In this document: one piece after another, positions 2,990 through 40,570 of the stretch
Position numbering within the stretch: position 1 is the stretch's first letter
How the letters are laid out: each line of letters starts with the position of its first letter
Source: Phyto melanocephala
Lineage: Eukaryota; Arthropoda; Insecta; Diptera; Rhinophoridae
DNA: 64,000 bases
Direction: 5' to 3'
Assembly: GCA_941918925.1 (NCBI GenBank)
Contig: OW799236.1
Span: 16,281,474 to 16,345,473, forward strand
Translations under genes and position numbers: made by a program
Notes under the pieces: model-generated
Told to the model about the DNA's origin: nothing
Seen by the model: the letters and a program-made list of their open reading frames with translations, nothing else
Databases searched by the model: none

Positions 2990-4266
2990 AAGTGAAGTAG
3001 AACTGACGTAAAACTGAACTAAAAGTTAGTTACAACTGAACTAGAACTTAAGGAGAACTGAACTAGAACTGAAACAAAGCTGAACTATAATTTAAGTAAA
3101 ATTAAGCTAGAACTGTAGATGAATTGAAGTGAACTAGATCTAAAATAGAACAAGAGCAGTAGTGAATTGAAAAATTAGAACTAATATAGAATTAAATCAC
3201 AACTAGACCAGAAGTGAAGAAGAACTGAAGTAGAATAAAATTATTAATACACTAGTAGTGTTGTAGAACTGAAGTAAAATTTCAGCACAACTGAACCAGG
3301 ACTGAAGTTTAAATAAAGAAGTACTGAAGTATAAATAAACTAGAACTGAACAAGAATTTAACAAAAACTGAACCAGAACTGAGCTAGAACTGAACTAGAA
3401 CTAAACTAGAACTGAACTAGAACTGAACTAGAACTCAACTAGAACTGAACTAGAACTAGAACTGATCTAGAACTGAACTAGAACTGAATTAGAACTGAAC
3501 TAGAACTGCACGAGAACTGAACTAGAACTGAAGTAGAACTGAACTAGAACTGAACTAGAACTGAACTAGAACTGAACTAGAACTGAACTAGAACTGAACT
3601 AGAACTGAACTAGAACTGAACTAGAACTGAACTAGAACTGAACTAGAACTGAACTAGAACTGAACTAGAACTGAACTAGAACTGAACTAGAACTGAACTA
3701 GAACTGAACTAGAACTGCACGTGAACTGAACTAGAACTGAACTAGAACTGAATTAGAACTGAACTAGAACTGAATTAGAACTGAACTAGAACTGAACTAG
3801 AACTTGACTAGAACTGAACTAGAACTGAACTAGAACCGAACTAGAACTGAACTAGAACTGAACTAGAACTTAACTAGAACTGAAGTAGAACTGAACTTGA
3901 AATGAACTAGAACTGAACTAGAACTGAACTAGAACTGAACTAGAACTGAACTAGAACTGAACTAGAACTGAACTAGAACTGAACTAGAACTGAACTAGAA
4001 CTGAACTAGAACTGAACTAGAACTGAACTAGAACTGAACTAGAACTGAACTAGAACTGAACTAGAACTGAACTAGAACTGAACTAGAACTGAACTAGAAC
4101 TGAACTAGAACTGAACTAGAACTGAACTAGAACTGAACTAGAACTGAACTAGAACTGAACTAGAACTGAACTAGAACTGAACTAGAACTGAACTAAAACT
4201 GAACTAGAACTGAACTAGAACTGAACTAGAACTGAACCATAACTGAACTAGAACTGAACCAGAAAT
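2990..4266 (+). repeat. 11-bp minisatellite (AACTGAACTAG)n
   Basis: The unit AACTGAACTAG is repeated head to tail. The left part (about 2990-3370) is badly diverged, with units such as GAACTGAAGTA and variable spacing. From about 3380 to 4250 it is close to homogeneous, with only scattered single changes. The gradient suggests expansion from an old seed. Each unit is itself a near-duplicate of a shorter GAACT/GAACTA half. The homogeneous part has in-frame stop-like TAG trinucleotides, so it does not encode a repeat protein. Confidence 0.95.
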
Positions 4267-7200
4267 GAGTTTTAACCTTGCCAGAAATAAAATATGACTG
4301 AACTAAAGTAGAATTTAGTTATTATCATGTTTTTACAAGAATTTTGTTCATTTTATAATTTTTTTTTTATTCTGAAAAATATAGCTTTTATAAAAATATT
4401 TTCTGACTGATGGTTTCTTATAATTTTTTTCACAATTGTTGTTTGTTCCCATTTAATTACAGTTTATGATGAATTTGCTCTAAAAAAGTTGTATATAGAA
4501 GTCTGATTTAGGTTAGCTGATTTTTCTTAGTGTTGCTAGTATTGCTGCTTATGATGTAGCGTTTTTACATGCATCAGCTGTTGTATAAAATTCCATTAAA
4601 ATATTTTTTTTACTTCAAGCAAACAGTAGTGCCAAACAATACGAGAATTGTAGCTTAAAGTTTCTCAAAAAAGGCAATACAACTATAAAACATACAGAGT
4701 TTAGCAATATTTTTTTAATTTAACTGTTCGTTGTGGTTGCTATAAAAAAACTGCTAAATTTTGAAATAGAGTATAAATAAAAACTTTGATATGAATGAGT
4801 ATGGAAAACTTTTGTTGTTGGCTTATTAATACTAAATGTATACCGCCAAAAATTCTTTTTACTTTTGCTATTCTTCTCCTGCCACCTTTTTTTTTAAGGA
4901 TACTTTAGTAGTGATCTTAGCTTTTTCCCATAATCACACACCACTCATTCTGACTAAAAATGAAGTTTTGTATGTATGCTTAGTATGCCAAAGTCTATGT
5001 GTGTGAATGTCTGTATATATGAAAGTATGTGTAATTGGCTTTGCCTTTGCTTTGCGTGTGTAGCAGTAGTTGGAAATTTTAATTTTCGTTAAAATTTGCA
5101 GCTTCAGTGGTTAAGCCTGCTGTATACTTGTAGCATGTGATGATGTTTGTTCTTTTGCTTTTTTCCGGTGTGGCTGCTGCAAAAATAAACTTTTGTAGTT
5201 GTTTTTTTTTACATTACTACGACTTTTTCTGGTGTAATGTTGACTGTTAAAAGTGTTTGGTAGTTGAGTAGAGGTTATTAGAGTCTATATTAGTAATTGC
5301 CTTTTTTTAGACACTAACTAACACATATACACATATTTGCACATACACAAAACTCACTTTATCATATGCCTAACACGCTAGTCATTTTGTGGCAAAATGA
5401 TTTTTTCTGTTGCTATTTTTTGACATTTCTAACAAATTCTGGTCTGACTTTTAATAAGAAATCCTTGGTTTGAGTTTTTTTTTTTTTTTGTTAAAGGAAA
5501 GGATCAATTTTTAAAAATGAATAATTATTTTGGTTTTTAAGGATGAGAAATGGTTTTAGTAAGGGAATTTAATTAGAAGATATTTTCGTCATATACACAA
5601 TTTAATATGTAGCATTGCGAGTGACAAGGATGAAGTATGACTGCAATATACTCTGTACATTCATAATTTTTGTAATTAAATTAAATATTTTAAACTATTA
5701 AGTGATTTATATTTTAGCAAATAGAAAGCAATTATATAATTGTAAATAAAAAACATTTACAAAATCGTATAAAATAAAAACCGTATAAAATATTAAATTG
5801 ATACAATCTGTAAGTATTATTTTGTTAAAATTTTACACATTTTCCTTATCGATTACAGACATTATGATTATAGCTACAATATGACATTGACAAGGTGAGT
5901 AAAATCATGACACAAGTCACTTTTTTTACTATACTCCGTTCTGTTCGCTTTGATGTTTTTTTTTACAAATCCAAGAATTCAACGCAATAAAAAATTAACA
6001 CGTATCATACACGATGTATAATAGAGAGATGAGACAAGGGTACAACTATTTTTTTAATTTGTAATGTTTTTTATAAAAATTTACCATTTATTAAGTCATA
6101 AATAACAGTTTTTTTAAGTATTGCTCATTTTATTGAACTGTTTTTGTTAAATTTAATGAATATTAACAAGAATTTTTATATCATATTTTTTTTTTAAATA
6201 ATCTATGAATATTACGTTTTCTATTTAGTCAGTTATATATTATTTACTAGTTGTGATCATAACTGAAATTTTTTTTATTTTGCTATACTACAACGTCACT
6301 TACTATAGCATTCTCTTTAAAGTACTTTCAATATAGTTAAGTGGCTATTGCAATCAATTAATTTTCTGTCATGATTTAAATCTTTCCATTTCAGTGCTTT
6401 CAATTATTCTAAAAAAACAATTTCAATTTTACTAAATTTTATTAATTTTTTTCCCCCCAAAAAAAAAAAATGCCATATCAAATACCAAATACAAATATAT
6501 TCCACTAAAATCTGTTTTTCACTTGTCAACATTGTGCTCAAACACAAACAACAATATCACAAGCGAAAAAAATAAACCGAAAAAAACACACACATACAAG
6601 TTGTTGAAAACCCCTCTCAAAGTGATTGTGGTCCTGGCTAAAAACTTATACAAAATACACCAACAGGAATGTATGGCAAATCTAACACACTTACAAGCAA
6701 CAATACCGGATCAAAAATATCAATGTTGCAGTAGCAACACATAGAAATATGGTAGAAAAAACAAAGAACATGATATTGAAATTTGTTAACCGAAAAAATA
6801 AAAATCAAAATAAATAAAAAAAAACTGTAAACATTTCCATGCATAGAGAAACAACTTCTGTCACATTGCATTGATGGAGGGTAAAAAATAAAAATACTTT
6901 TATTTTTATAAATTTGTTTGGTTTCATAGACAAAGCTTTGGTGTTTTTGTTTTTGTATTGTTTGAAAATTTGTCATAGATTTTTAAAGGGCTTACGTTTA
7001 GCTATTACAGACATGTTTCACAATTCGTTTAGAGCAACGAAAGCACACTGTGCACTGTATTCGGCGACTAGTTTACTTAAGGTAAACCATAATGTAAGGT
7101 ATTTTATATTCGTTGCCGTTATACAGTCGTAATAAACAATTGTTATTCTAGTGCTTTATTTAAAGTTTTTTATCTTTTTCAATATTTTTTTATTCAATTT

Positions 7201-10776: not shown

Positions 10777-13674
10777 TTACCCCCTATGTACCCCGGGAGT
10801 ACTACATGAATAAAAGTTTTGACCAGAAACACTATCTGGTCGTTCCCTTAAAATTCCAATCGCGGAAAGATAATTAGTGTTTGACCAACTAAATTCCTGC
10901 TCGCAGGACAAAATATCCTGCATTACACTGCCTTCAAAGTAAGTCAATCTTTCTACAAAATGCCTTAACGAATCAATAGCATAAATGGAAATAGGAGATA
11001 TGTTCGCCTGCTTGTATATAAATTTATTCGAAAACCTTTTCTCAAAAGACTTAAAATTTTTTCCAATGCACTTTCGTACAATATGGCGCTCAAATACCTC
11101 CATTCTTTTCATCATTGTTTTAGAGATGCTAAACCATATTGGAAATGCATATAAAAGAATTGGTCTTATATTTACTTTGTACAAAAGTAATTTTGTGTTA
11201 ACTGGTAAAGATTTACTATTAAACAATCTCGAAAAAGCACCTTTAACTCGATTTGCCTTTTCTAAATTATAAACTACATGCTTATTAAATTTTAACAATT
11301 TATTAAAGTTTACTCCAAGATACTTCACGCTATCCTTAAATATGATTTCCGAACTATTTAACGTTAATTTCAAATTTTTACTTTCTGGGACAACAGTATA
11401 TTTGCATTTTCCAGAAGCATTACGTAAACATAAAGCGTTGCTCTTGGAAGCATTAATTTTTATTCCCCAATGAGAATAATATTCATCAACATATTTAAGG
11501 TGCGATGAAACACGTTGGAGCGCTACTAAAGGAGATTCATCATGAGAATAAAGTAATGAATCGTCAGCATAAAGTGTACCCTTAGAGTTATTAAATTCAT
11601 GGGGAAAATCATGAATAAATATGTTGTACAAAAGAGGTGCCAATACAGAGCCCTGTGGAACACCACAATAAATATCACCCAGAGAAGAAGACCAATCATC
11701 AATTTGAACGTAAAATTTCCTGTCATCAAAAAAGCTTTTAAAAAGTTTTATAATTGCTGCGTTAAAACCAAGTCCTATCATTTTAAAAAGTATGCCATTA
11801 TGATAGGCCTTATCAAAAGCTTTTTCTACGTCAAGTGATACTGCAACAGTGCAATGACCTTTTCGTAAATTTTTAACGACATCAGTGTGAAAACTTAGAA
11901 GAGCATGCACTGTGGAATTACCTTTCTTAAACCCAAACTGTTTCTGAGGGATATATGGCTCATTCAGATCTATATCCATTTTTTCCCGAATTATTTTTTC
12001 AAATAACTTTCCTACATTAGAAAGTAATGAAATTGGTCTTAAGCTGTCAATATCAATTTTACCCTTCTGTTTTGGTATAGGAATTATCCTTGCAATTTTC
12101 CATGAAATAGGAAAATAGGAGTTGTTTAAGCAATTATTAAATAATATAGTAAGGTATTCAAAGGCTTTAATAGGAAGTTTCTTAATTAAATAGTTCGATA
12201 TATTATCCAAACCACACGACTTTTTATTATTTATCTGCCTAGAAATTTCCAAAAGATTATTTAAACTTGTAAACTTTAAATTACCCTCGTTGTTTAATGA
12301 AGTTGTATTGTCATTGTATGTTAGTTGATTTGAGAGTTGTGAAATTGTTTCATGTATGGCTTCATTAACTTGTGAAACATTTCTATTAGGTGGAGAACAC
12401 TGATAAACAGAGGAAAAATGATCTTTTAAAATATCTAATTTGTGATTCACATCTGTAATTTTTACACCGTTAACGGATATATCTTTAACACCAGATCGAT
12501 TCGCATTTCCAATAATCTTAAAAATTCGTTTATAAGCCATTGGTCCAGGTTTTATTTCTTTTAATTTTTCACTAAAAATATTTGCCTGCTCTAACTCAAT
12601 CTGCTCCTTTATAATTATTTTAATTAAATCAATTTGCTTTGAAATTAGCAAGTATTCAGGATGTTTTCTGTTCAGAGTCCTTTTAAATATCCTTTTTAAA
12701 TCTTTCTGCCAGTTATATTTGATACGAAGTAAATTTTTCACTTTATCAGAAACAACATATTTTTCATTTTTCCTTATAAATTTTGTGGAATGAATTTTCG
12801 TCATAAAATTTATTGTGGTATTAAATTCTTCTATAAAACAATCTATTTCTCTATTTGATAAATTTCTATTATCCGGAGGAAAATGATTCAATAGGGTATT
12901 ACTGACGTCAATTTTGAATGTATTCCAATCTGTGCCTTTGAAAGACACAAAATGGTTAGGAATTTTGAAAATAAAGTTAAAATCTAATAATGAAATATGA
13001 AGACCTAAAGGAAGATGATCCGAAAAAGTAGGCAGTGTAAATGTCTTAAAATTTGGAACGAAATTTTCAATAAAATTATTGCTTACTATAAAATGGTCTA
13101 AATGAGAGCATCCGCCTGGATAGGTGGGATGTGAATCACATATACGAGTAACTGAAATGGATTCATCCTGAACCCAATTTGAGAGAATTTCGCCATTAAA
13201 GTTGTTGCTTATATCACCCCAAGAAGAGTGCTTTGCATTCAAATCCCCACCTAATATCAACCCATCATAACTGTTTGAAAAACTCAAAATGAAAGACATA
13301 CCACTATGTATAATTTGACGATTGCAGTTACTTGGAAAATAAATTGACCCACAAAGAATTTTCTTACTGCTACCATTTAACGAAACTTTTATTACAATAA
13401 ATAAATTTGGAAAACGAAGGTTTGGAATGCATACTTTTGAAAAGGAAATAAAGTTTTTAACCGCTATACCTATACCTAATTGACTTTCGTCCCTTAGAAC
13501 TGTATAGTCGTCAAAATACACATTTGCGTTTAAGGGCAGATGCATTTCTTGTAAAAAAGCAATTTCAATGTTAAATTTATTTAATATCATATTAAGCTCA
13601 ATTTTTCTTCCTATATTGACAAGAGAACCAACATTAAAAGTTACTAAATTTAGAGAATTACGGACCATAGACAT
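10777..13674 (-). CDS. ORF2: endonuclease-reverse transcriptase of Jockey-like LINE
   Basis: The 965-residue protein nicks target DNA and copies element RNA by target-primed reverse transcription. The N-terminal AP-type endonuclease shows LVTFNVGSLV, AFLQEMHLP, GGDLNAKHSSWGD and SDHLPLGLHI, which hold the catalytic Asn, Glu, Asp and Asp-His residues. The RT domain shows ARIIPIPKQKG, LRPISLLSNVGKLFE, QFGFKKGNSTVHAL, SLDVEKAFDKAYH, GVPQGSVLAPLLYN and the catalytic YADD (residues 702-705, DNA 11560-11571), followed by the KYLGVNF thumb-side motif. No RNase H follows, as expected of the Jockey clade. Length is normal for the family and no frame breaks are seen. The start ATG overlaps the end of ORF1 (ORF1 stop at 13658-13660), as in coupled translation of related elements. 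Confidence 0.95.
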   Translation of the reverse strand: MSMVRNSLNLVTFNVGSLVNIGRKIELNMILNKFNIEIAFLQEMHLPLNANVYFDDYTVLRDESQLGIGIAVKNFISFSKVCIPNLRFPNLFIVIKVSLNGSSKKILCGSIYFPSNCNRQIIHSGMSFILSFSNSYDGLILGGDLNAKHSSWGDISNNFNGEILSNWVQDESISVTRICDSHPTYPGGCSHLDHFIVSNNFIENFVPNFKTFTLPTFSDHLPLGLHISLLDFNFIFKIPNHFVSFKGTDWNTFKIDVSNTLLNHFPPDNRNLSNREIDCFIEEFNTTINFMTKIHSTKFIRKNEKYVVSDKVKNLLRIKYNWQKDLKRIFKRTLNRKHPEYLLISKQIDLIKIIIKEQIELEQANIFSEKLKEIKPGPMAYKRIFKIIGNANRSGVKDISVNGVKITDVNHKLDILKDHFSSVYQCSPPNRNVSQVNEAIHETISQLSNQLTYNDNTTSLNNEGNLKFTSLNNLLEISRQINNKKSCGLDNISNYLIKKLPIKAFEYLTILFNNCLNNSYFPISWKIARIIPIPKQKGKIDIDSLRPISLLSNVGKLFEKIIREKMDIDLNEPYIPQKQFGFKKGNSTVHALLSFHTDVVKNLRKGHCTVAVSLDVEKAFDKAYHNGILFKMIGLGFNAAIIKLFKSFFDDRKFYVQIDDWSSSLGDIYCGVPQGSVLAPLLYNIFIHDFPHEFNNSKGTLYADDSLLYSHDESPLVALQRVSSHLKYVDEYYSHWGIKINASKSNALCLRNASGKCKYTVVPESKNLKLTLNSSEIIFKDSVKYLGVNFNKLLKFNKHVVYNLEKANRVKGAFSRLFNSKSLPVNTKLLLYKVNIRPILLYAFPIWFSISKTMMKRMEVFERHIVRKCIGKNFKSFEKRFSNKFIYKQANISPISIYAIDSLRHFVERLTYFEGSVMQDILSCEQEFSWSNTNYLSAIGILRERPDSVSGQNFYSCSTPGVHRG

Positions 13675-15322
13675 CTTGAATTTCCTTAATTAAACTCACG
13701 CATTCCTTTCGGGCTTGATCTCTTGTCATAGACTTGTAATTTTTTATAAAATTAGTAATTTTATCCTCTAGCGTCAAAGACTCCGGACCACAAACTTCTT
13801 TAGCGATTTCCAAAAATTCCCGAATCAAAGCTGGTTTTTCGTGCCTGTTTTGTAGAGGAACTTCAGTCAAACCATTAAATAAACTGGCAAAAGATTTATT
13901 TTTGGAAATATGATTAGATGGTTTGAGAGCCATTTCAACATTAGCAGTTGCTGTTACTTTCCTAGACTTTACTTCCTCATAAGATTATCTTCTATAAGAA
14001 ACGTATTTCTTATATGCAGGACACCCCCTATAATTTGATGTATGACCACTCTCATTGCAGTTAACGCAGAACGGTAATATATTATTCTCAGGGACAATAG
14101 CACATTCACCTGGGGCATGCTTTTCATGACATTTTACACACGAAAAAGGGCGACTACAATTTTTAGAATAATGACCCCACCTTTGGCATCTCCAACACTG
14201 TGGAACTTTCGTATTAGTCTTTGGCCGTTCCCATGTCACTGCCTGTCTAAGGATACATTTTACGCCAAGCAACTCATTTACTTTACGATTCGGTTTGAGG
14301 GTTACTAAAAATAAACCTGTGTCAATGCCTTGTTTTCTTGAATATTCCGTCGAAAACTTTGAAATAGAGTCAACTGTGTCTGGGACAATTATGTCAATTT
14401 CCGATTTAATATCATTGATATCAGATTTATAATACAAACCTCTACAAACAATGCTCTGACGTTTAAACTCCTTGGGAGTGTATGTATAAGAAGGAATTTC
14501 CTTTTCCCTTAAAAGCTCCATCATTTCTGAATGTGCAGAAGAGTCTTTGAAGTACAGTTTGCTCTTGTATTTACCCTGATTCTTAATTTTGAATTCTACG
14601 TTTTTGGAATTTAGCTGGTCAATTAAAGATTTAATATTTACATTTTCAAGAAATATAGGAGGGCAATAAGAATTTATGTTTCTTAGAATAGAAGTATTAT
14701 CAATAAATCCTGAATTACTACAATCTAAATTTGTGGAACTAATTGGCCTTTCGGCCTCTACATTTAAGTCACCTAATACAGAATACTTATTTGTTCTATT
14801 TACATTATCAACCAACTTATTTAATTTTTTAAATTGACAATTAGCCAAATCAATTTTTACGTCACCTTGAAATGTTCGTTTTTTGTTTTTGACTGTTTGA
14901 AATTCGACTTCCATTGATGAAATTGACAATCGCTCATGGTCCGTACAGGTTTCAATTTGTTCCTCTGATAGAATTGGTATTTTTATGTTTTCCAAAACTT
15001 GGACGTTGCTATTTACAGATACAAACGATTCTTCTAAATCTCCTTTTGCTTGCGTTAATAGAGACTGTTTATCAAAAGCAGCATCACGAAGTTGTTGGCC
15101 AAGCTGGGAATTTCTGACAACAGTTTCTTTTGCCTCTGGCTTATTTACACTCTGTACATTAGGTTGAGCAATAGGATGATTTGAATTCGCTACAACATGT
15201 GTGCCTTTGGAAATAGCCAATGTCTTCTTTTTAACAGCTAATAATGTTTTTCCAGAATTATTAGGAGGTCGTCCTCCAGTTTGAGAAAGTAAGGGATCCT
15301 TTCCCATCTTATTAATATTCAA
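13658..15322 (-). pseudogene. ORF1: gag-like nucleic-acid-binding protein with one in-frame stop
   Basis: ORF1 begins at the ATG at 15322 and reads 445 residues to a TAA at 13985-13987. The same frame continues for 108 more codons to a stop at 13658, which overlaps ORF2. The first part ends in three zinc knuckles starting at residue 376: CWRCQRWGHYSKNC, CVKCHEKHAPGEC and CVNCNESGHTSNYRGC. The N-terminal half is polar and low in recognisable motifs, as usual for LINE gag proteins. The total of about 553 codons fits Jockey ORF1. The TAA is therefore a premature stop (or a readthrough site). It removes the tail after the last knuckle but leaves the nucleic-acid-binding domain. Confidence 0.88.
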
Positions 15323-18051: not shown

Positions 18052-18067
18052 AAAAAAAATATTTAAT
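18052..18067. repeat. 16-bp direct repeat flanking the ribozyme array, left
   Basis: AAAAAAAATATTTAAT at 18052-18067 recurs at 26058-26073, on the other side of the array. It may be a target-site duplication, but the sequence is simple and AT-rich, so chance or A-run slippage cannot be excluded. Its last few bases overlap the start of the inverted monomer. Confidence 0.4.
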
Positions 18068-18226
18068 CATATATTTATATTTATTCGAACTTTTTTCTAT
18101 ATATTAAATTTTAATGTGAACCATTTTTTATTTTGGCTTAAGTTCATTTGTTTATTTATTTAATTTTATAATTCAAATTAAATTAAATTGTTACCATTTT
18201 AGGAATATTCTTTCTAAAAATTATTT

Positions 18227-18294
18227 CCGATATTAGCCGAGTGGAATGCATTTTCGAAATCAGCTACGATTTCATCATCAGCACTCTTTATCGG
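18227..18294 (-). ncRNA. Hammerhead ribozyme, type I, inverted copy
   Basis: The reverse complement is identical over all 68 nt to the plus-strand copies. It is the only ribozyme on this strand and faces the copy at 18792, so a read-through transcript would form a long hairpin in this region. Confidence 0.85.
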
Positions 18295-18791
18295 TATACT
18301 ACTATGTAACTTAAAATTCCTATTTATGTTACAATTGAATGAAATTTGAATTAGTGAATCTTAGTATCATTTTTCATATTTTGTTGAATATTTAATTTCA
18401 CCTATCAAATGACAATTCATAATTCAACATGTTCATATTCTTCTATATTCGTAATACATTTTCGTTATGCTTTCAATATCCATCCTTTGGCTGGAATTAT
18501 TGAAAACAAGGTTGTATTTACATTTTCATTTATATAAGTCCATCTAGGTGATATAAATGAAAATGTAAATACAACCTTGTTTTCAATAATTCCAGCCAAA
18601 GGATGGATATTGAAAGCATAACGAAAATGTATTACGAATATAGAAGAATATGAACATGTTGAATTATGAATTGTCATTTGATAGGTGAAATTAAATATTC
18701 AACAAAATATGAAAAATGATACTAAGATTCACTAATTCAAATTTCATTCAATTGTAACATAAATAGGAATTTTAAGTTACATAGTAGTATA

Positions 18792-18859
18792 CCGATAAAG
18801 AGTGCTGATGATGAAATCGTAGCTGATTTCGAAAATGCATTCCACTCGGCTAATATCGG
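18792..18859 (+). ncRNA. Hammerhead ribozyme, type I (reference copy)
   Basis: The RNA can be read 5' to 3' as: stem I outer CCGAU; loop AAA; stem I inner GAGUG; core CUGAUGA; an extra U; stem II GAAAUC, loop GUAGCU, GAUUUC; core GAA; stem III AAUGCAUU; cleavage base C17; stem I inner CACUC; loop GGCUAAU; stem I outer AUCGG. All Watson-Crick pairs in both parts of stem I and in stem II are perfect. The predicted scissile bond follows C at 18842, in UUC, an allowed NUH triplet. The asymmetric stem I loop sits where natural hammerheads contact loop II. Stem III is a self-complementary 8-mer, too short to fold well alone, as in dimer-acting hammerheads of animal satellites and retrozymes. The extra U between A9 and stem II is non-canonical. 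Activity is inferred. Confidence 0.87.
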
Positions 18860-19333
18860 AAATAATTTTTAGAAAGAATATTCCTAACATGGTTACAATT
18901 TAATTTAATTTGAATTATAAAATTAAATAAATAAACAAATGAACTTAAGCCAAAATAAAAAATGGTTCACATTAAAATTTAATATATAGAAAAAAGTTCG
19001 AATAAATATAAATATATGATTATAACACACATGGCACGGTGTTAATGACACTCAAGAATTCATTGTTCAGTGTCTATCACCGAGATGGACTTATATAAAT
19101 GAAAATGTAAATACAACCTTGTTTTCAATAATTCCAGCCAAAGGATGGATATTGAAAGCATAACGAAAATGTATTACGAATATAGAAGAATATGAACCTG
19201 TTGAATTATGAATTGTCATTTGATAGGTGAAATTAAATATTCAACAAAATATGAAAAATGATACTAAGATTCACTAATTCAAATTTCATTCAATTGTAAC
19301 ATAAATAGGAATTTTAAGTTACATAGTAGTATA

Positions 19334-19401
19334 CCGATAAAGAGTGCTGATGATGAAATCGTAGCTGATTTCGAAAATGCATTCCACTCGGCTAATATCG
19401 G
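19334..19401 (+). ncRNA. Hammerhead ribozyme copy 2
   Basis: Identical to the 18792 copy, at +250 in the monomer starting at 19084 (CCGAG, AACCTG variant). Confidence 0.85.
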
Positions 19402-19875
19402 AAATAATTTTTAGAAAGAATATTCCTAACATGGTTACAATTTAATTTAATTTGAATTATAAAATTAAATAAATAAACAAATGAACTTAAGCCAAAATAA
19501 AAAATGGTTCACATTAAAATTTAATATATAGAAAAAAGTTCGAATAAATATAAATATATGATTATAACACACATGGCACGGTGTTAATGACACTCAAGAA
19601 TTCATTGTTCAGTGTCTATCACCTAGATGGACTTATATAAATGAAAATGTAAATACAACCTTGTTTTCAATAATTCCAGCCAAAGGATGGATATTGAAAG
19701 CATAACGAAAATGTATTACGAATATAGAAGAATATGAACATGTTGAATTATGAATTGTCATTTGATAGGTGAAATTAAATATTCAACAAAATATGAAAAA
19801 TGATACTAAGATTCACTAATTCAAATTTCATTCAATTGTAACATAAATAGGAATTTTAAGTTACATAGTAGTATA

Positions 19876-19943
19876 CCGATAAAGAGTGCTGATGATGAAA
19901 TCGTAGCTGATTTCGAAAATGCATTCCACTCGGCTAATATCGG
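19876..19943 (+). ncRNA. Hammerhead ribozyme copy 3
   Basis: Identical motif in the monomer starting at 19626 (CCTAG, AACATG variant). Confidence 0.85.
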
Positions 19944-20417
19944 AAATAATTTTTAGAAAGAATATTCCTAACATGGTTACAATTTAATTTAATTTGAATT
20001 ATAAAATTAAATAAATAAACAAATGAACTTAAGCCAAAATAAAAAATGGTTCACATTAAAATTTAATATATAGAAAAAAGTTCGAATAAATATAAATATA
20101 TGATTATAACACACATGGCACGGTGTTAATGACACTCAAGAATTCATTGTTCAGTGTCTATCACCGAGATGGACTTATATAAATGAAAATGTAAATACAA
20201 CCTTGTTTTCAATAATTCCAGCCAAAGGATGGATATTGAAAGCATAACGAAAATGTATTACGAATATAGAAGAATATGAACCTGTTGAATTATGAATTGT
20301 CATTTGATAGGTGAAATTAAATATTCAACAAAATATGAAAAATGATACTAAGATTCACTAATTCAAATTTCATTCAATTGTAACATAAATAGGAATTTTA
20401 AGTTACATAGTAGTATA

Positions 20418-20485
20418 CCGATAAAGAGTGCTGATGATGAAATCGTAGCTGATTTCGAAAATGCATTCCACTCGGCTAATATCGG
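20418..20485 (+). ncRNA. Hammerhead ribozyme copy 4
   Basis: Identical motif in the monomer starting at 20168 (CCGAG, AACCTG). Confidence 0.85.
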
Positions 20486-20959
20486 AAATAATTTTTAGAA
20501 AGAATATTCCTAACATGGTTACAATTTAATTTAATTTGAATTATAAAATTAAATAAATAAACAAATGAACTTAAGCCAAAATAAAAAATGGTTCACATTA
20601 AAATTTAATATATAGAAAAAAGTTCGAATAAATATAAATATATGATTATAACACACATGGCACGGTGTTAATGACACTCAAGAATTCATTGTTCAGTGTC
20701 TATCACCGAGATGGACTTATATAAATGAAAATGTAAATACAACCTTGTTTTCAATAATTCCAGCCAAAGGATGGATATTGAAAGCATAACGAAAATGTAT
20801 TACGAATATAGAAGAATATGAACCTGTTGAATTATGAATTGTCATTTGATAGGTGAAATTAAATATTCAACAAAATATGAAAAATGATACTAAGATTCAC
20901 TAATTCAAATTTCATTCAATTGTAACATAAATAGGAATTTTAAGTTACATAGTAGTATA

Positions 20960-21027
20960 CCGATAAAGAGTGCTGATGATGAAATCGTAGCTGATTTCGA
21001 AAATGCATTCCACTCGGCTAATATCGG
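20960..21027 (+). ncRNA. Hammerhead ribozyme copy 5
   Basis: Identical motif in the monomer starting at 20710 (CCGAG, AACCTG). Confidence 0.85.
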
Positions 21028-21501
21028 AAATAATTTTTAGAAAGAATATTCCTAACATGGTTACAATTTAATTTAATTTGAATTATAAAATTAAATAAAT
21101 AAACAAATGAACTTAAGCCAAAATAAAAAATGGTTCACATTAAAATTTAATATATAGAAAAAAGTTCGAATAAATATAAATATATGATTATAACACACAT
21201 GGCACGGTGTTAATGACACTCAAGAATTCATTGTTCAGTGTCTATCACCTAGATGGACTTATATAAATGAAAATGTAAATACAACCTTGTTTTCAATAAT
21301 TCCAGCCAAAGGATGGATATTGAAAGCATAACGAAAATGTATTACGAATATAGAAGAATATGAACATGTTGAATTATGAATTGTCATTTGATAGGTGAAA
21401 TTAAATATTCAACAAAATATGAAAAATGATACTAAGATTCACTAATTCAAATTTCATTCAATTGTAACATAAATAGGAATTTTAAGTTACATAGTAGTAT
21501 A

Positions 21502-21569
21502 CCGATAAAGAGTGCTGATGATGAAATCGTAGCTGATTTCGAAAATGCATTCCACTCGGCTAATATCGG
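21502..21569 (+). ncRNA. Hammerhead ribozyme copy 6
   Basis: Identical motif in the monomer starting at 21252 (CCTAG, AACATG). Confidence 0.85.
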
Positions 21570-22043
21570 AAATAATTTTTAGAAAGAATATTCCTAACAT
21601 GGTTACAATTTAATTTAATTTGAATTATAAAATTAAATAAATAAACAAATGAACTTAAGCCAAAATAAAAAATGGTTCACATTAAAATTTAATATATAGA
21701 AAAAAGTTCGAATAAATATAAATATATGATTATAACACACATGGCACGGTGTTAATGACACTCAAGAATTCATTGTTCAGTGTCTATCACCGAGATGGAC
21801 TTATATAAATGAAAATGTAAATACAACCTTGTTTTCAATAATTCCAGCCAAAGGATGGATATTGAAAGCATAACGAAAATGTATTACGAATATAGAAGAA
21901 TATGAACCTGTTGAATTATGAATTGTCATTTGATAGGTGAAATTAAATATTCAACAAAATATGAAAAATGATACTAAGATTCACTAATTCAAATTTCATT
22001 CAATTGTAACATAAATAGGAATTTTAAGTTACATAGTAGTATA

Positions 22044-22111
22044 CCGATAAAGAGTGCTGATGATGAAATCGTAGCTGATTTCGAAAATGCATTCCACTCG
22101 GCTAATATCGG
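22044..22111 (+). ncRNA. Hammerhead ribozyme copy 7
   Basis: Identical motif in the monomer starting at 21794 (CCGAG, AACCTG), the last of the 542-bp units. Confidence 0.85.
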
Positions 22112-22585
22112 AAATAATTTTTAGAAAGAATATTCCTAACATGGTTACAATTTAATTTAATTTGAATTATAAAATTAAATAAATAAACAAATGAACTTAA
22201 GCCAAAATAAAAAATGGTTCACATTAAAATTTAATATATAGAAAAAAGTTCGAATAAATATAAATATATGATTATAACACACATGGCACGGTGTTAATGA
22301 CACTCAAGAATTCATTGTTCAGTGTCTATCACCTAGATGGACTTATATAAATGAAAATGTAAATACAACCTTGTTTTCAATAATTCCAGCCAAAGGATGG
22401 ATATTGAAAGCATAACGAAAATGTATTACGAATATAGAAGAATATGAACCTGTTGAATTATGAATTGTCATTTGATAGGTGAAATTAAATATTCAACAAA
22501 ATATGAAAAATGATACTAAGATTCACTAATTCAAATTTCATTCAATTGTAACATAAATAGGAATTTTAAGTTACATAGTAGTATA

Positions 22586-22653
22586 CCGATAAAGAGTGCT
22601 GATGATGAAATCGTAGCTGATTTCGAAAATGCATTCCACTCGGCTAATATCGG
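22586..22653 (+). ncRNA. Hammerhead ribozyme copy 8
   Basis: Identical motif in the monomer starting at 22336 (CCTAG with AACCTG, a mixed haplotype), the first 547-bp unit. Confidence 0.85.
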
Positions 22654-23132
22654 AAATAATTTTTAGAAAGAATATTCCTAACATGGTTACAATTTAATTT
22701 AATTTAATTTGAATTATAAAATTAAATAAATAAACAAATGAACTTAAGCCAAAATAAAAAATGGTTCACATTAAAATTTAATATATAGAAAAAAGTTCGA
22801 ATAAATATAAATATATGATTATAACACACATGGCACGGTGTTAATGACACTCAAGAATTCATTGTTCAGTGTCTATCACCGAGATGGACTTATATAAATG
22901 AAAATGTAAATACAACCTTGTTTTCAATAATTCCAGCCAAAGGATGGATATTGAAAGCATAACGAAAATGTATTACGAATATAGAAGAATATGAACCTGT
23001 TGAATTATGAATTGTCATTTGATAGGTGAAATTAAATATTCAACAAAATATGAAAAATGATACTAAGATTCACTAATTCAAATTTCATTCAATTGTAACA
23101 TAAATAGGAATTTTAAGTTACATAGTAGTATA

Positions 23133-23200
23133 CCGATAAAGAGTGCTGATGATGAAATCGTAGCTGATTTCGAAAATGCATTCCACTCGGCTAATATCGG
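23133..23200 (+). ncRNA. Hammerhead ribozyme copy 9
   Basis: Identical motif in the 547-bp monomer starting at 22883. Confidence 0.85.
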
Positions 23201-23679
23201 AAATAATTTTTAGAAAGAATATTCCTAACATGGTTACAATTTAATTTAATTTAATTTGAATTATAAAATTAAATAAATAAACAAATGAACTTAAGCCAAA
23301 ATAAAAAATGGTTCACATTAAAATTTAATATATAGAAAAAAGTTCGAATAAATATAAATATATGATTATAACACACATGGCACGGTGTTAATGACACTCA
23401 AGAATTCATTGTTCAGTGTCTATCACCGAGATGGACTTATATAAATGAAAATGTAAATACAACCTTGTTTTCAATAATTCCAGCCAAAGGATGGATATTG
23501 AAAGCATAACGAAAATGTATTACGAATATAGAAGAATATGAACCTGTTGAATTATGAATTGTCATTTGATAGGTGAAATTAAATATTCAACAAAATATGA
23601 AAAATGATACTAAGATTCACTAATTCAAATTTCATTCAATTGTAACATAAATAGGAATTTTAAGTTACATAGTAGTATA

Positions 23680-23747
23680 CCGATAAAGAGTGCTGATGAT
23701 GAAATCGTAGCTGATTTCGAAAATGCATTCCACTCGGCTAATATCGG
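23680..23747 (+). ncRNA. Hammerhead ribozyme copy 10
   Basis: Identical motif in the 547-bp monomer starting at 23430. Confidence 0.85.
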
Positions 23748-24226
23748 AAATAATTTTTAGAAAGAATATTCCTAACATGGTTACAATTTAATTTAATTTA
23801 ATTTGAATTATAAAATTAAATAAATAAACAAATGAACTTAAGCCAAAATAAAAAATGGTTCACATTAAAATTTAATATATAGAAAAAAGTTCGAATAAAT
23901 ATAAATATATGATTATAACACACATGGCACGGTGTTAATGACACTCAAGAATTCATTGTTCAGTGTCTATCACCGAGATGGACTTATATAAATGAAAATG
24001 TAAATACAACCTTGTTTTCAATAATTCCAGCCAAAGGATGGATATTGAAAGCATAACGAAAATGTATTACGAATATAGAAGAATATGAACCTGTTGAATT
24101 ATGAATTGTCATTTGATAGGTGAAATTAAATATTCAACAAAATATGAAAAATGATACTAAGATTCACTAATTCAAATTTCATTCAATTGTAACATAAATA
24201 GGAATTTTAAGTTACATAGTAGTATA

Positions 24227-24294
24227 CCGATAAAGAGTGCTGATGATGAAATCGTAGCTGATTTCGAAAATGCATTCCACTCGGCTAATATCGG
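24227..24294 (+). ncRNA. Hammerhead ribozyme copy 11
   Basis: Identical motif in the 547-bp monomer starting at 23977. Confidence 0.85.
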
Positions 24295-24773
24295 AAATAA
24301 TTTTTAGAAAGAATATTCCTAACATGGTTACAATTTAATTTAATTTAATTTGAATTATAAAATTAAATAAATAAACAAATGAACTTAAGCCAAAATAAAA
24401 AATGGTTCACATTAAAATTTAATATATAGAAAAAAGTTCGAATAAATATAAATATATGATTATAACACACATGGCACGGTGTTAATGACACTCAAGAATT
24501 CATTGTTCAGTGTCTATCACCGAGATGGACTTATATAAATGAAAATGTAAATACAACCTTGTTTTCAATAATTCCAGCCAAAGGATGGATATTGAAAGCA
24601 TAACGAAAATGTATTACGAATATAGAAGAATATGAACCTGTTGAATTATGAATTGTCATTTGATAGGTGAAATTAAATATTCAACAAAATATGAAAAATG
24701 ATACTAAGATTCACTAATTCAAATTTCATTCAATTGTAACATAAATAGGAATTTTAAGTTACATAGTAGTATA

Positions 24774-24841
24774 CCGATAAAGAGTGCTGATGATGAAATC
24801 GTAGCTGATTTCGAAAATGCATTCCACTCGGCTAATATCGG
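24774..24841 (+). ncRNA. Hammerhead ribozyme copy 12
   Basis: Identical motif in the 547-bp monomer starting at 24524. Confidence 0.85.
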
Positions 24842-25320
24842 AAATAATTTTTAGAAAGAATATTCCTAACATGGTTACAATTTAATTTAATTTAATTTGA
24901 ATTATAAAATTAAATAAATAAACAAATGAACTTAAGCCAAAATAAAAAATGGTTCACATTAAAATTTAATATATAGAAAAAAGTTCGAATAAATATAAAT
25001 ATATGATTATAACACACATGGCACGGTGTTAATGACACTCAAGAATTCATTGTTCAGTGTCTATCACCGAGATGGACTTATATAAATGAAAATGTAAATA
25101 CAACCTTGTTTTCAATAATTCCAGCCAAAGGATGGATATTGAAAGCATAACGAAAATGTATTACGAATATAGAAGAATATGAACCTGTTGAATTATGAAT
25201 TGTCATTTGATAGGTGAAATTAAATATTCAACAAAATATGAAAAATGATACTAAGATTCACTAATTCAAATTTCATTCAATTGTAACATAAATAGGAATT
25301 TTAAGTTACATAGTAGTATA

Positions 25321-25388
25321 CCGATAAAGAGTGCTGATGATGAAATCGTAGCTGATTTCGAAAATGCATTCCACTCGGCTAATATCGG
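25321..25388 (+). ncRNA. Hammerhead ribozyme copy 13
   Basis: Identical motif in the 547-bp monomer starting at 25071. Confidence 0.85.
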
Positions 25389-25867
25389 AAATAATTTTTA
25401 GAAAGAATATTCCTAACATGGTTACAATTTAATTTAATTTAATTTGAATTATAAAATTAAATAAATAAACAAATGAACTTAAGCCAAAATAAAAAATGGT
25501 TCACATTAAAATTTAATATATAGAAAAAAGTTCGAATAAATATAAATATATGATTATAACACACATGGCACGGTGTTAATGACACTCAAGAATTCATTGT
25601 TCAGTGTCTATCACCGAGATGGACTTATATAAATGAAAATGTAAATACAACCTTGTTTTCAATAATTCCAGCCAAAGGATGGATATTGAAAGCATAACGA
25701 AAATGTATTACGAATATAGAAGAATATGAACATGTTGAATTATGAATTGTCATTTGATAGGTGAAATTAAATATTCAACAAAATATGAAAAATGATACTA
25801 AGATTCACTAATTCAAATTTCATTCAATTGTAACATAAATAGGAATTTTAAGTTACATAGTAGTATA

Positions 25868-25935
25868 CCGATAAAGAGTGCTGATGATGAAATCGTAGCT
25901 GATTTCGAAAATGCATTCCACTCGGCTAATATCGG
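25868..25935 (+). ncRNA. Hammerhead ribozyme copy 14 (last, truncated monomer)
   Basis: Identical motif in the terminal monomer starting at 25618. This monomer has AACATG and the TAAAATGG variant downstream. It lacks the extra TAATT and is cut off before the next start. Confidence 0.85.
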
Positions 25936-26057
25936 AAATAATTTTTAGAAAGAATATTCCTAAAATGGTTACAATTTAATTTAATTTGAATTATAAAATT
26001 AAATAAATAAACAAATGAACTTAAGCCAAAATAAAGAATGGTTCACATTAAAATTTA

Positions 26058-26073
26058 AAAAAAAATATTTAAT
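26058..26073. repeat. 16-bp direct repeat flanking the ribozyme array, right
   Basis: AAAAAAAATATTTAAT, the match to 18052-18067, directly after the truncated last monomer. Confidence 0.4.
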
Positions 26074-31719: not shown

Positions 31720-34593
31720 TACACGCAAAGAAAAAATATGGTTGTGGTAACCATAATCGAAGGGCATCATACTATGATTGAATTGTATGATTATGGTTAA
31801 AAATAATTATGGTTGCCAGTTATCATTATTATGTTTTATTAAAGTATCATTCAATAATCATATATATGACTACAATTGAAGTCGACAATTTTTGCTTTTT
31901 TACGGCAAATTATTATCTTTTGCTATGACATACACATATTGATTATACTTACCAATTAAATTGCAATATTTTTTACAAATATTTTTTACATTTTCTCCTT
32001 TGTTTGTAAATCTTCTTTAATTTTTCAAAATTTTTGTTCATTTTTTTGACATCTCAAACATTTAAAATAATAAAAATTTATTCAGCAAGAAGAAGAACAG
32101 TTGAAATCAAATTATTATTAAAAAAAATCATAGCTTTTTAATTTTGTAATCATACTGTTGTCTCGCTTATTATTTAATGATTATTTTTATACCCGCCACC
32201 AAAAAAATGGTGGGGGTATATTCATTTTGTCATTCCGTTTGTAACACATCGAAATATCCATTTTAGACCCCATAAAGTATATATATTCTGAATCAGGGTT
32301 TGATTTTATGACGATCTAGCTATGTCCGTCCGTCTGTCCGTCTGTTCGTCTGTCCGTCTGTCCGTCTGTTGAAAGCACGATAGAGGTCACACCGAAAAAG
32401 CTAGGGGGCTCAAATTTTGCCAGAATCTTTCTTATAGACAAGGTTTGTTTGGTATTGAAAATGGGCTTAATCGGAATATTAGGAAGAGAGTTATAGCTCG
32501 AAAAGCAAGAGTAGGTCGAAAAAACCGTGTCCTTCAAACATCGAATAAAATGGAATTGTGTCCAAACGCATTAACGTAGACTCATGAAACTTCGAATATA
32601 TATTTCCTGAGTAAAAGCACTATTTCTCCCCGAAAATTGTCTAAATATATGCATTAGGAGAGGAGTTATCGATCAAAATGTACGAAAATTTATACCGCAC
32701 AGTGTATTTTTCGGTATATTTAAAAACAAAAACGTCATAAAAGCAACAAAATTGGATGTACGACTCTGAAATTTTGCACACTTTGCTTATTGGTGAGACG
32801 CTTTTTTGTAACGGAAAATCAATGTGCCACGCCCACTTTTACGCCCACCTCCCATATAACGTTTTACCCAAAATTCATATAATTTCTCAATTTATGTAGA
32901 TTTTGGAATAATAAAGGGCTATATTGAAACATCTCAGTTGTACTCATTCGAAAATACAACTTTGACACGCCCACTATAACGCCCACTTTTCACGTTATAT
33001 ACCGTTAATGAAATTTAAAAGCTCATAAAACCACCAAAATAAGAGGTATTATGATAAAATTTGCTGCATATTTCCCCTTAGGCAATGTCATTACTGTGCT
33101 AGAAAATTGAGTTGCCACGCCCACTTTTACGCCCACCTCCCATATAACGTTTTACTCAAAATTCCTCTAATTTCTCTATTAATAATGATTTTGGATTAAT
33201 AAAGGGCTATATTGAAACACCTAAGTTGTACTCATTCGCCAAAACAACTTTGACACGCCTACTATAACGCCCACTTTTCACGTAATCTACCGTTAATGAA
33301 ATTTAAAAGCTCATAAAACCGCCAGAATTAGAGGTATGATGATCAAATTTGCTGTGTATATCCTTCTAATCAATGTTATTGTTGTGCCAAAAAGTTTAGG
33401 TGACACGGCCACTTTAACGCCTACCTCCCATACAACGGCTTACCTTAAATTCATGTAATTTCTCTATTGACAAAGTTTTTGGGAAAATAAAGGGCTATAT
33501 TGAAATATTTAAGTTGTATTTATTAGTAGAAACTTTATTGACACAGCTACTTTAACACACTTTCATTGAATTTTATTTCATTTAAGGACCGATGTTGTAT
33601 TTAAATAAAACACAAATTATTTAAGATATTATTATTTCTTTTTATAATGATAATATTTGTATGGTTCAATTATGTATTTAACAAAATATCGGCCAAATGG
33701 CCCCCCCATCCTTGGCGCCACTCCTCTATCTGATGGTCGAAATTTTCAATGACAATGTTGATGCTCAATTATTGGGCATGATGATGAGTCGAGGTTGACT
33801 GCTCTTTTGCCACACTATCGCAAAAAACAGCAATAGTTCCCATTCAACGAACTAAGAAGGCATTCACAGATTTTCTAACATTTTATACAGACCTGTTTTG
33901 CAGAAATTTAAATATTTTTTACAATTCTCCCGATTGTGGACGAATTTGAACGATTATGTTGATCAAAAGAATTACGAAGTGCACAAAATGCATTTTGATT
34001 TGAACGCCCATTTTTATAAAAAACCTGAATAACTTTAAAGCGTTGCTCATTTGCGTATCTTTCCACGGATCAAAATGAGTAAGTTTGAGATTGAGAAATG
34101 TCAAGTAAAATGCAGAAAACAAACTTAAAGACTAGGTGTAGTTCACCTTCAACTTGGGCCCTTAAAATTTAACCACCCTCTACAAAGAAAGTGATACATA
34201 TTTTATTATAAAGAGATTATTCCATAATGATTAACAAAATAATAAATATTGTGCTTTAAATGTACACAAAATTGGTGGTGGGTATAAAAGATTCGGCACA
34301 GCCGAATATAGTGCTCTTACTTGTTAATTTTTAATGATTTTGAATATAATGTTATTTTTGTCAAATTAATTTTTTTAAATCATACTATTTTTAAATGATA
34401 ACCATTTTGAAATTTTTACGAAAAGTTATCATTAAATGATACAATTCAAACAAATGCTTGATTATCGTAACAAAATATATGATGAAATGAAACAAAAATA
34501 ACTATTACTTGTTTTCGACAACCAAATATTGTTTTAGAAAAAATAATATGACCGTCGTGATCATGTCGTTACCATGGTTTTTCTGTGCGTGTA
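31720..34593 (+). mobile_element. TA-flanked MITE, copy 1 (split by a DINE-1-like element)
   Basis: The ends are TACACGCAAAGAAAAA and its inverse CTGTGCGTGTA. The element proper (31722-34591) is split: 31722-32187 plus 34326-34591 add up to about 732 bp, the size of intact copies at 35664-36396 (inverted relative to this one) and 57751-58480. TA lies on both sides. The interior includes the palindrome-like GGTTACGACATGATCACGAC class of sequence and an AATCATACTGTTGT segment found in all three. Confidence 0.8.
32188..34325 (+). mobile_element. DINE-1/INE-1-like element, 2.1-kb subtype
   Basis: It begins TATACCCGCCACC and continues with TTTGTCATTCCGTTTG, a CCCCATAAAGTATATATATT box and a CCGTCTGTCCGTCTGT microsatellite. 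The middle repeats CCACGCCCACTTTTACGCCC blocks about 145-300 bp apart. It ends in a hairpin, TTCGGCACAGCCGAA, and CTCTTACTTGTT. All are features of the INE-1/DINE-1 Helentron group. Comparison with uninterrupted MITE copies shows it entered a T-run (GATTATTTT/TAATTT), consistent with Helentron insertion between two Ts. It encodes nothing. Confidence 0.82.
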
Positions 34594-39699: not shown

Positions 39700-40570
39700 A
39701 CTAGCCAAACCCGGCGCGCGTTGCTACGCCCTTTAATGAATCGAAATGCATTCTGAATTTTAATTAAATATCAAGTGCAAAAACCTAAAAATTATAATTT
39801 TTTATGGGCGTGGCATTGCCCACTTTTCTAGTCACGAAATTGTAAAGTCATAACAGCTCAATATGTGTGCAAAGTTTCAGAAGAATCGGACCAGTGCAAG
39901 TACCTCAAAATTAAAATTGTTTTTATGGGCGTGGCCCTGCCCACTTTCCTAATTACGAAATTGTAAAGTCATAACAGCTCAACATGTGTGCAAAGTTTCA
40001 GAATAATCGGTCCAGTGAAAGTACCTCAAAATGATACCTTTTTTTATGGGCGTGGCACTGCCCACTTTTCTAATCACGAAATTATTGAGTGATGACAGCT
40101 CAATATGTGTGCAAAGTTTCAGAAAAATCGGCCTGGTGCAAGTACCTCAAAATTATAGCCTTTTTTTATGGGCGTGGCCCCGCCCACTTTTTTAGTCACA
40201 AAATTATAAAGTCACGACAGCTTAATAGGTGTGCAAAGTTTCAGAAAAATCGGTCCAGTGCAAGTACCTCAAAATTAAAACTTTTTTAGGGGCGTGGCCC
40301 CGCCCACTTTTCTTATCACAAAATTATTGAGTCATGACAGCTCGATATGTGTGCAAAGTTTCAGAAAAATCGGTCAAGTGCAAGTAGCTAAAACTGATAA
40401 CTAATTTTTTATGGGCGTGGCCCCGCCCACTTTTTTTCATCCATAGACACTCCCCGGTATGTGTACAACAACTTACCAAAGTTTGAGCCCGATCGGTTTT
40501 ATAGTTTCAGAGTCTATAGCTAACACACACACACACACACACAGAGTTTCACTTTTATATATATAGATAG
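39700..40570 (+). repeat. Interspersed element with six 122-bp internal repeats
   Basis: A head reading ACTAGCCAAACCCGGCGCGC is followed by six units of 121-123 bp. Each begins with ATGGGCGTGGC (39804, 39925, 40046, 40168, 40288 as AGGGGCGTGG, and 40411) and contains a CCCACTTTT box, a TCATGACAGCTCAATATGTG-like box and AAGTTTCAGAAAAATCGG. The tail is (CA)n, then AGAGTTTCACTTTTATATAT and ATAGAT. The CG-containing head and TATATA-GAT tail look like a defined mobile element that is common in arthropods. I cannot name its family. No coding potential. Confidence 0.75.

What the first reader, a model, noticed from the sequence alone, without database searches (positions are those of the whole stretch)
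18064..26057. Tandem repeat in which every monomer carries a hammerhead ribozyme (retrozyme-like satellite)
Fifteen copies (14 plus, 1 minus) of one 68-nt sequence are embedded in 542/547-bp repeats. The sequence has both hammerhead core boxes (CUGAUGA and GAA), a two-part stem I with perfect pairing on both sides of an asymmetric loop, a 6-bp stem II, and a UUC cleavage triplet exactly where type I topology requires it. Known animal retrozymes and ribozyme satellites (newt, schistosome, cave cricket) have this design, in which tandem transcripts self-cleave to unit-length RNA that can circularise. A non-coding ribozyme-bearing satellite of this size in a fly would be worth describing. The structure is seen in the sequence. 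Activity and mobility are inferred.
Basis: partly seen in the sequence, partly recalled or inferred. Interest (0 to 1): 0.95.

Follow-up and report, generated by a model that had tools for sequence, protein, structure and literature searches.

The report
Fly satellite repeat with hammerhead ribozymes
A fly-like genome carries a block of about fourteen near-identical 0.5-kb DNA repeats, each with a sequence that looks like a self-cutting RNA, flanked by signs that the block was copied in from RNA; similar elements are known in other animals, and the cutting itself has not been tested.

Summary
At 18064-26058 there are 14 direct copies (spacing 542 x7, 547 x6) and one inverted copy; all 15 carry the same 68-nt type I hammerhead-like motif. 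The core has an extra U between A9 and stem II, and no Rfam hammerhead model matches, even at E=10. An extra residue there occurs in the active (+) hammerhead of chrysanthemum chlorotic mottle viroid, where U raised trans-cleavage 3-4 fold (review passages). Loop 1 (GGCUA) is complementary to loop 2 (UAGCU), a known hammerhead pseudoknot. The full descriptor appeared 4 times in 16446 shuffled windows. Energies favour an inactive hairpin in the monomer; in the dimer a double hammerhead is competitive but not the minimum. A 16-bp direct repeat abuts both array ends and the first copy is inverted, as target-primed reverse transcription with twin priming would give. Best reading: a retrozyme-like non-LTR satellite in a fly, with a variant core. 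Activity, circular RNA and mobility are untested. The own-genome search did not complete (20 tries), so other copies could not be compared and there is no covariation evidence.

The parts
18052..18067 (.). left copy of 16-bp direct repeat AAAAAAAATATTTAAT (candidate target-site duplication); its last 4 bases TAAT overlap the inverted unit
   Evidence: a shared run >=16 in AT-rich window pairs: 124 of 19719; 16-mer occurs twice on + and once on - strand of the window
18064..18553 (-). single inverted copy of the unit (head-to-head with the array)
18237..18281 (-). hammerhead-like core in the inverted copy
18551..26058 (+). array of 14 direct units (7 of 542 bp, 6 of 547 bp, last one truncated)
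18792..18859 (+). first direct hammerhead-like motif, 68 nt; type I order
18792..18797 (+). stem I outer 5' strand CCGATA, pairs with 18854-18859
18800..18804 (+). stem I inner 5' strand GAGTG, pairs with 18843-18847
18805..18811 (+). CUGAUGA box (C3 to A9)
18812..18812 (+). extra U between A9 and stem II (position 10)
   Evidence: sequence; only the one-insertion form of the descriptor matches
18813..18830 (+). stem II GAAATC/GATTTC with loop 2 GUAGCU
18831..18833 (+). GAA box
18834..18841 (+). palindromic stem III AAUGCAUU (2 bp + UGCA tetraloop in cis; 8 bp between two copies)
   Evidence: sequence; energies
18842..18842 (+). C17; predicted cleavage after this base (UUC)
   Evidence: sequence; cleavage itself inferred
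18848..18853 (+). loop 1 3' strand GGCUAA; GGCUA complementary to loop 2 UAGCU (4 Watson-Crick + 1 G-U)
18843..19384 (+). predicted unit-length product, 542 nt, between two cleavage sites
   Evidence: inferred
26058..26073 (.). right copy of the 16-bp direct repeat
10777..15322 (-). neighbouring Jockey-type LINE: 965-aa ORF2 frame (endonuclease + reverse transcriptase) and a 445-aa upstream frame taken as ORF1 by position (no Pfam match); shows such machinery is present nearby, not shown to act on the array

Best explanation
A retrozyme-like ribozyme satellite. Tandem units are read through into multimeric RNA. Neighbouring copies pair through the palindromic AAUGCAUU to form a double type I hammerhead, braced by the GGCUA/UAGCU loop-loop pseudoknot, with an extra U after A9. 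Each hammerhead cuts after UUC and yields 542/547-nt RNA, which a host ligase may circularise. Monomer RNA refolds into a stable inactive hairpin, so products are not cut again. The block at this locus arose from such RNA copied into DNA at an A-rich nick (target-primed reverse transcription with a twin-priming inversion of the 5' end) and was then homogenised or expanded at DNA level. Shown: repeat, motif, complementarities, direct repeats, inverted first copy. Inferred: transcription, cleavage, circularisation, the enzyme used.
For: 15 of 15 copies carry an identical motif. Descriptor (core with at most one extra base, stem II >=6, inner stem I >=5): 29 hits in 16446 dinucleotide-shuffled windows; with outer stem I >=5 and loop-loop complementarity >=4 as well: 4 hits. 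The extra residue sits where the active CChMVd(+) hammerhead has A10, and A10 to U raised trans-cleavage 3-4 fold there (PMC3705267 passages). Loop-loop pseudoknots are judged likely in about 40% of hammerheads (PMC3088659 section 7); a 5-bp inner stem I, internal loop and 6-bp stem II with paired loops are described for HDV-like hammerheads, with structurally similar ones in dipteran genomes (PMC7936874 sections 9 and 10). Weak stem III with palindromic tetraloop is described for axolotl HHR_Amex1 (PMC7229834 passage). Energies: monomer hammerhead -9.9 vs alternative hairpin -16.9; 610-nt dimer with double hammerhead -116.1 vs two alternative hairpins -114.7. 16-bp direct repeat abuts both ends; the complement of the left junction reads TTTTTTTT/AT, like the L1 endonuclease site TTTT/A given in PMC2837659. 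Inverted first copy, 4-nt TAAT overlap at the left junction and ATA overlap at the inversion point fit twin priming. Unit is 25% GC with no stop-to-stop frame over 49 codons.
Against: No Rfam hammerhead model matches even at E<=10. The monomer's minimum-energy fold is not a hammerhead. The 610-nt dimer's minimum (-119.0) is 2.9 kcal/mol below the double hammerhead and forms no hammerhead at either motif; nor does that of a 1084-nt doubled unit. All copies are identical in the motif, so there is no covariation. The 16-bp repeat is AT-rich: 124 of 19719 AT-rich window pairs share a run as long, and the 16-mer also occurs once on the minus strand elsewhere in the window. No clear poly(A) tail. 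No RNA data. No other genomic copies could be examined: the genome search did not complete. The two end copies differ from the interior, so the array has changed since it formed.
Confidence: 0.6

Rival explanations
1. An ordinary AT-rich satellite whose most stable hairpin happens to resemble a hammerhead; no self-cleavage.
For: No Rfam hammerhead match; the predicted fold of the monomer is a plain hairpin and dimer minima hold no hammerhead; one motif per family means one independent observation, and many windows are presumably read in such a scan.
Against: Full descriptor expected about 2.4e-4 times per window (4 of 16446), and that count ignores the compact 8-nt palindromic stem III and the placement of the extra U at a tolerated position.
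Confidence: 0.2
2. A decayed retrozyme: the lineage once self-cleaved, but the extra U or the weak stem III has inactivated this family, which now spreads only as satellite DNA by unequal exchange.
For: Core departs from consensus; six 547-bp units are identical and so look recently amplified at DNA level.
Against: Core boxes, stems and loop complementarity are intact in 15 of 15 copies, though recent homogenisation alone could explain that; U at position 10 is the favourable choice in the CChMVd study as reviewed.
Confidence: 0.15
3. Ribozyme real, but the block was made at DNA level (excised circles, rolling-circle DNA or unequal crossing-over); the flanking 16-bp repeat and the inverted copy are not signs of reverse transcription.
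For: AT-rich repeat has about 0.6% chance among AT-rich window pairs and the 16-mer has a third, minus-strand occurrence in the window; unit variants in the cleavage frame read X Y X X Y X, one mixed unit, then 547-bp units (read by hand), as local duplications would give.
Against: Repeat abuts both array ends exactly; inversion lies at the 5' end with TAAT overlap at the left junction, as twin priming predicts.
Confidence: 0.32
4. A protein-coding relic: the motif lies in a 48-codon open frame (..IKSADDEIVADFENAFHSANIGNNF stop) and the hammerhead likeness is incidental.
For: That frame is the longest stop-to-stop segment on the plus strand of the unit and runs through the motif.
Against: No Pfam match at E<=10 and no PDB match at E<=10, though a 48-residue query is weak; coding would not explain nested pairing plus complementary loops.
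Confidence: 0.04

Closest known systems
Animal non-LTR retrozymes with type I hammerheads (Cervera and de la Pena 2020, PMC7229834)
   Same: type I order; non-coding tandem units of a few hundred bp, low GC, multimers; target-site duplications longer than 4 bp when present
   Different: unit 542/547 bp against 150-450 bp reported there; extra U in the core; no RNA evidence here
Axolotl/newt satellite hammerheads (HHR_Amex1; satellite 2 in newts)
   Same: weak stem III closed by palindromic tetraloop; amphibian motifs need dimeric constructs for efficient cleavage
   Different: extra core base here; Watson-Crick loop-loop pairing here; sequences were not aligned
pDo500 satellite of Dolichopoda cave crickets (PMC2808323)
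   Same: insect satellite of about 500 bp (length from the name, recalled) with a hammerhead-like region (passages)
   Different: orthopteran; sequence not compared here; its hammerhead region is reported no more conserved than the rest
HDV-like and dipteran type III hammerheads (PMC7936874)
   Same: 5-bp inner stem I, internal loop pairing with loop 2, 6-bp stem II; similar motifs in flies
   Different: type III there, type I here; whether the fly motifs lie in tandem repeats is not said in the sections I read
Chrysanthemum chlorotic mottle viroid (+) hammerhead
   Same: one extra residue between A9 and stem II (review passages)
   Different: A there, U here; an infectious plant RNA, not a genomic repeat

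Membership tests
Hammerhead ribozyme | CUGANGA and GAA boxes, A15.1-U16.1, NUH site, in a three-way junction | tested here: met
   descriptor, 15 of 15 copies, with one extra base after A9
Hammerhead ribozyme | no insertions in the catalytic core (consensus) | tested here: not met
   extra U at 18812; tolerated precedent CChMVd
Hammerhead ribozyme | match to Rfam hammerhead models | tested here: not met
Hammerhead ribozyme | predicted fold is a hammerhead | tested here: inconclusive
   not the minimum for monomer or dimer; double hammerhead within 2.9 kcal/mol of the 610-nt dimer minimum; tertiary contacts not modelled
Hammerhead ribozyme | loop 1 - loop 2 tertiary contact | tested here: inconclusive
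   GGCUA/UAGCU are complementary; chance 0.056 for >=4 Watson-Crick pairs, 0.016 with >=5 including G-U; the contact itself is inferred
Hammerhead ribozyme | site-specific self-cleavage | not testable with these tools
   needs in vitro transcription
Hammerhead ribozyme | covariation of stems among homologues | not tested
   all copies identical in the motif; own-genome search not answered
Animal non-LTR retrozyme | tandem non-coding units with type I hammerhead, GC below 50%, no LTR/PBS/PPT | tested here: inconclusive
   tandem, 25% GC, longest frame 49 codons; hammerhead is a variant; PBS/PPT not searched
Animal non-LTR retrozyme | target-site duplication longer than 4 bp (when present) | tested here: met
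   16 bp at both ends; AT-rich, chance about 0.6%, third occurrence on minus strand
Animal non-LTR retrozyme | many dispersed copies in the genome | not tested
   The genome search unanswered in 20 of 20 tries; no other copy within this 64-kb window
Animal non-LTR retrozyme | unit-length linear and circular RNA | not testable with these tools
   no RNA data
Twin-primed LINE-type insertion | direct repeats bounding two mutually inverted fragments, with junction overlap | tested here: met
   enzyme not identified
Twin-primed LINE-type insertion | 3' poly(A) tail and internal deletion | tested here: inconclusive
   right end runs into nine A that overlap the 16-mer; a deletion cannot be seen in a tandem array
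Twin-primed LINE-type insertion | empty site with a single 16-mer | not tested
   no related genome reachable

The most novel reading that the evidence does not exclude
A fly retrozyme whose genomic hammerhead has fixed the extra U10 that viroid mutagenesis found favourable, acts only as a double hammerhead on multimeric RNA, and is integrated by LINE-type target-primed reverse transcription, with a twin-priming scar showing how animal retrozyme arrays enter chromosomes.
Probability: 0.24. Interest if true: 0.72.

Novelty: new variant of a known kind. Interest (0 to 1): 0.52.

Why it matters
Which enzyme moves animal retrozymes is an open question in the papers I saw: the 2020 review says the repeats show no conserved motif that reveals the partner and names Penelope-like elements and Terminons as likely candidates (PMC7761336 passages). 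A locus with long direct repeats and a 5' inversion points to target-primed reverse transcription and can be tested by an empty site. The Rfam hammerhead models do not report this motif, so similar ribozymes with an extra core base may be undercounted in flies (inference from one case).

Tried and rejected
Rfam searches of the whole window and of two narrower stretches gave no hammerhead. The weak C/D snoRNA rows (for example SNORD98, 14.5 bits against a cut-off of 50) rest on the UGAUGA letters and were rejected. The Phe_leader row and most microRNA rows match the palindrome at the head-to-head junction and were rejected. A Penelope-like element in the window was not looked for beyond the ORF list. 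A type III hammerhead scan of both strands found nothing. Pol III A-box and B-box patterns (typed from recall) found nothing in the unit. No further copy of the unit lies elsewhere in the window; the blastn rows are short AT-rich matches. Pattern scans of the viral and prokaryote collections found nothing; both answers warn that records of the window's own genome may be left out. A covariance model was not built because all copies are identical in the motif. Literature searches behind statements about what is in print: (open-licence PMC only; one search listed 20 of 23, 15 of 18, 8 of 36, 6 of 15).
Full report
What is there. The array is real. Fourteen direct units with spacing 542 (seven times) and 547 (six times) run from 18551 to 26058, and one further copy lies inverted at 18064-18553. 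The 13 complete units differ at only two single bases and one 5-bp indel. The 68-nt motif is the same in all 15 copies, 14 plus and 1 minus. Outside the array the window holds no further copy of the unit. The unit is 25% GC and has no stop-to-stop frame above 49 codons. The genome looks dipteran on thin grounds: the best-scoring named protein like the Jockey-type LINE beside the array is from Lucilia cuprina (48% identity over 94%), while unnamed database proteins reach 70% and a shorter named match is from a moth, Eumeta japonica. The species was not identified.

The motif. In window numbering of the first direct copy: stem I outer 18792-18797/18854-18859 and inner 18800-18804/18843-18847, CUGAUGA 18805-18811, an extra U at 18812, stem II 18813-18818/18825-18830, GAA 18831-18833, palindrome AAUGCAUU 18834-18841, C17 at 18842. 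This is type I order. No Rfam hammerhead family matches, at gathering scores over the whole window or at E<=10 over the array or the motif alone. That is a real negative: by the model test this is not a recognised hammerhead.

Is it chance? I searched for CUGANGA, at most one extra base, stem II, GAA-A, a short stem III, UH and stem I. Only the 15 known places match in the window. In 16446 dinucleotide-preserving shuffles of the window, 29 hits had stem II >=6 and inner stem I >=5; 16 of these also had an outer stem I >=5, 5 had loop-loop complementarity >=4, and 4 had both. With looser stems (both >=4) plus outer stem and loop pairing there were 75 hits. An earlier run gave 4 hits with stem II >=6 and inner stem I >=5 in 3028 shuffles. 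Expectation is therefore about 2e-4 per window for the full pattern. The descriptor was written after seeing the motif, and many windows are presumably read in such a scan, so this is good but not overwhelming evidence. It does not count the compact palindromic stem III.

Does the extra U matter? A review of chrysanthemum viroids (PMC3705267, passages seen) states that the plus hammerhead of CChMVd carries an extra A between A9 and G10.1, that it lowers trans-cleavage moderately, that C or G there is very harmful, and that U raises the rate 3-4 fold. The primary paper (De la Pena and Flores 2001) was seen only as a reference. The satellite here carries U at that place. Perreault and colleagues (PMC3088659, sections 7 and 8) discuss other core insertions, some with low activity, and report that about 40% of hammerheads probably use a pseudoknot between stems I and II. 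Here GGCUA just after the inner stem I is complementary to UAGCU in loop 2; among 40000 random sets of flanks from this window, 5.6% reach four Watson-Crick pairs and 1.6% also reach five with G-U. A similar layout (5-bp inner stem I, internal loop, 6-bp stem II, paired loops) is described for HDV-like type III hammerheads and related motifs of flies (PMC7936874, sections 9 and 10).

How it probably works. Stem III in cis is two A-U pairs under a TGCA loop. With nearest-neighbour energies the monomer prefers an inactive hairpin (-16.9) to the hammerhead (-9.9). In a transcript of two neighbouring copies the eight-base palindrome can pair between copies, and the double hammerhead (-116.1) is slightly better than two inactive hairpins (-114.7). 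The overall minimum is -119.0 and forms no hammerhead at either motif; a doubled unit of 1084 nt also keeps the inactive hairpin at both. These energies leave out tertiary contacts, so dimer cleavage is a prediction, not a result. It would match amphibian retrozymes and differ from most invertebrate ones (PMC7761336 passages). The circular unit folds more stably than each of 200 shuffles (z -2.9).

How it got there. The 16-mer AAAAAAAATATTTAAT stands at 18052-18067 and 26058-26073, touching both ends of the array; it occurs at no other place on the plus strand and at one place on the minus strand. Among 19719 random pairs of AT-rich windows 124 share a run at least as long, so chance is about 0.6% before asking that the repeats abut the ends. 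The first copy is inverted, its outer junction shares TAAT with the 16-mer, and the inversion point shares ATA. This is what twin priming predicts for a sense-strand RNA copied from an A-rich nick (PMC2837659, abstract and passages). A clear poly(A) tail is not seen. The enzyme is unknown. A LINE with an endonuclease-reverse transcriptase frame of 965 aa lies 2.7 kb away, which shows only that such machinery exists here; Penelope-like elements, a partner suggested in print, were not excluded. The end copies share a base (TAAAATGG) that the interior lacks, so later homogenisation at DNA level is likely.

Known or new? Type I hammerhead repeats in insects are mentioned in PMC7229834 (section 14), mosquito repeats with hammerheads in PMC3088659 (passage), and a cricket satellite in PMC2808323 (passages). 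I saw no described fly satellite of this design in the listings of searches of open-licence papers; most subscription papers are not held. I therefore file it as a retrozyme-like satellite with a variant core: on the evidence at hand it is built like a retrozyme, while membership is open because activity, circular RNA and genome-wide copies could not be tested. The whole-genome search was requested 20 times and never answered (calls listed in Tried and rejected).

Noticed in passing
10777-15322 (-): Jockey-type LINE: 965-aa frame with endonuclease and reverse transcriptase domains, and a 445-aa upstream frame without Pfam match; best-scoring named relative Lucilia cuprina, 48% identity over 94%.
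   Followed up: partly
18551-26058: Unit variants read in the cleavage frame run X Y X X Y X, one mixed unit, then 547-bp units, suggesting a three-unit duplication and a recent burst; rests on two single bases and one 5-bp indel, read by hand.
   Followed up: partly
18064-18553 and 25627-26058: The two end copies share TAAAATGG where interior units read TAACATGG, so the edges keep an older or different variant.
   Followed up: no
18064-19022: Near-perfect 472-bp head-to-head palindrome with a 15-bp spacer; would form a very long hairpin in RNA or single-stranded DNA.
   Followed up: no
3323-4268: 946-bp array of an 11/22-bp unit (ACTGAACTAGA-like), 92% matches.
   Followed up: no
39774-40434 and 32824-33518: Two other tandem repeats, period 121 and 288, 85% matches each, share the word CGCCCACTTTT: 3 and 4 exact copies.
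   Followed up: partly
window, many places: Repeated blocks of A/T-rich low-complexity sequence (period 11-13) and GTCCGTCT-like microsatellites.
   Followed up: no
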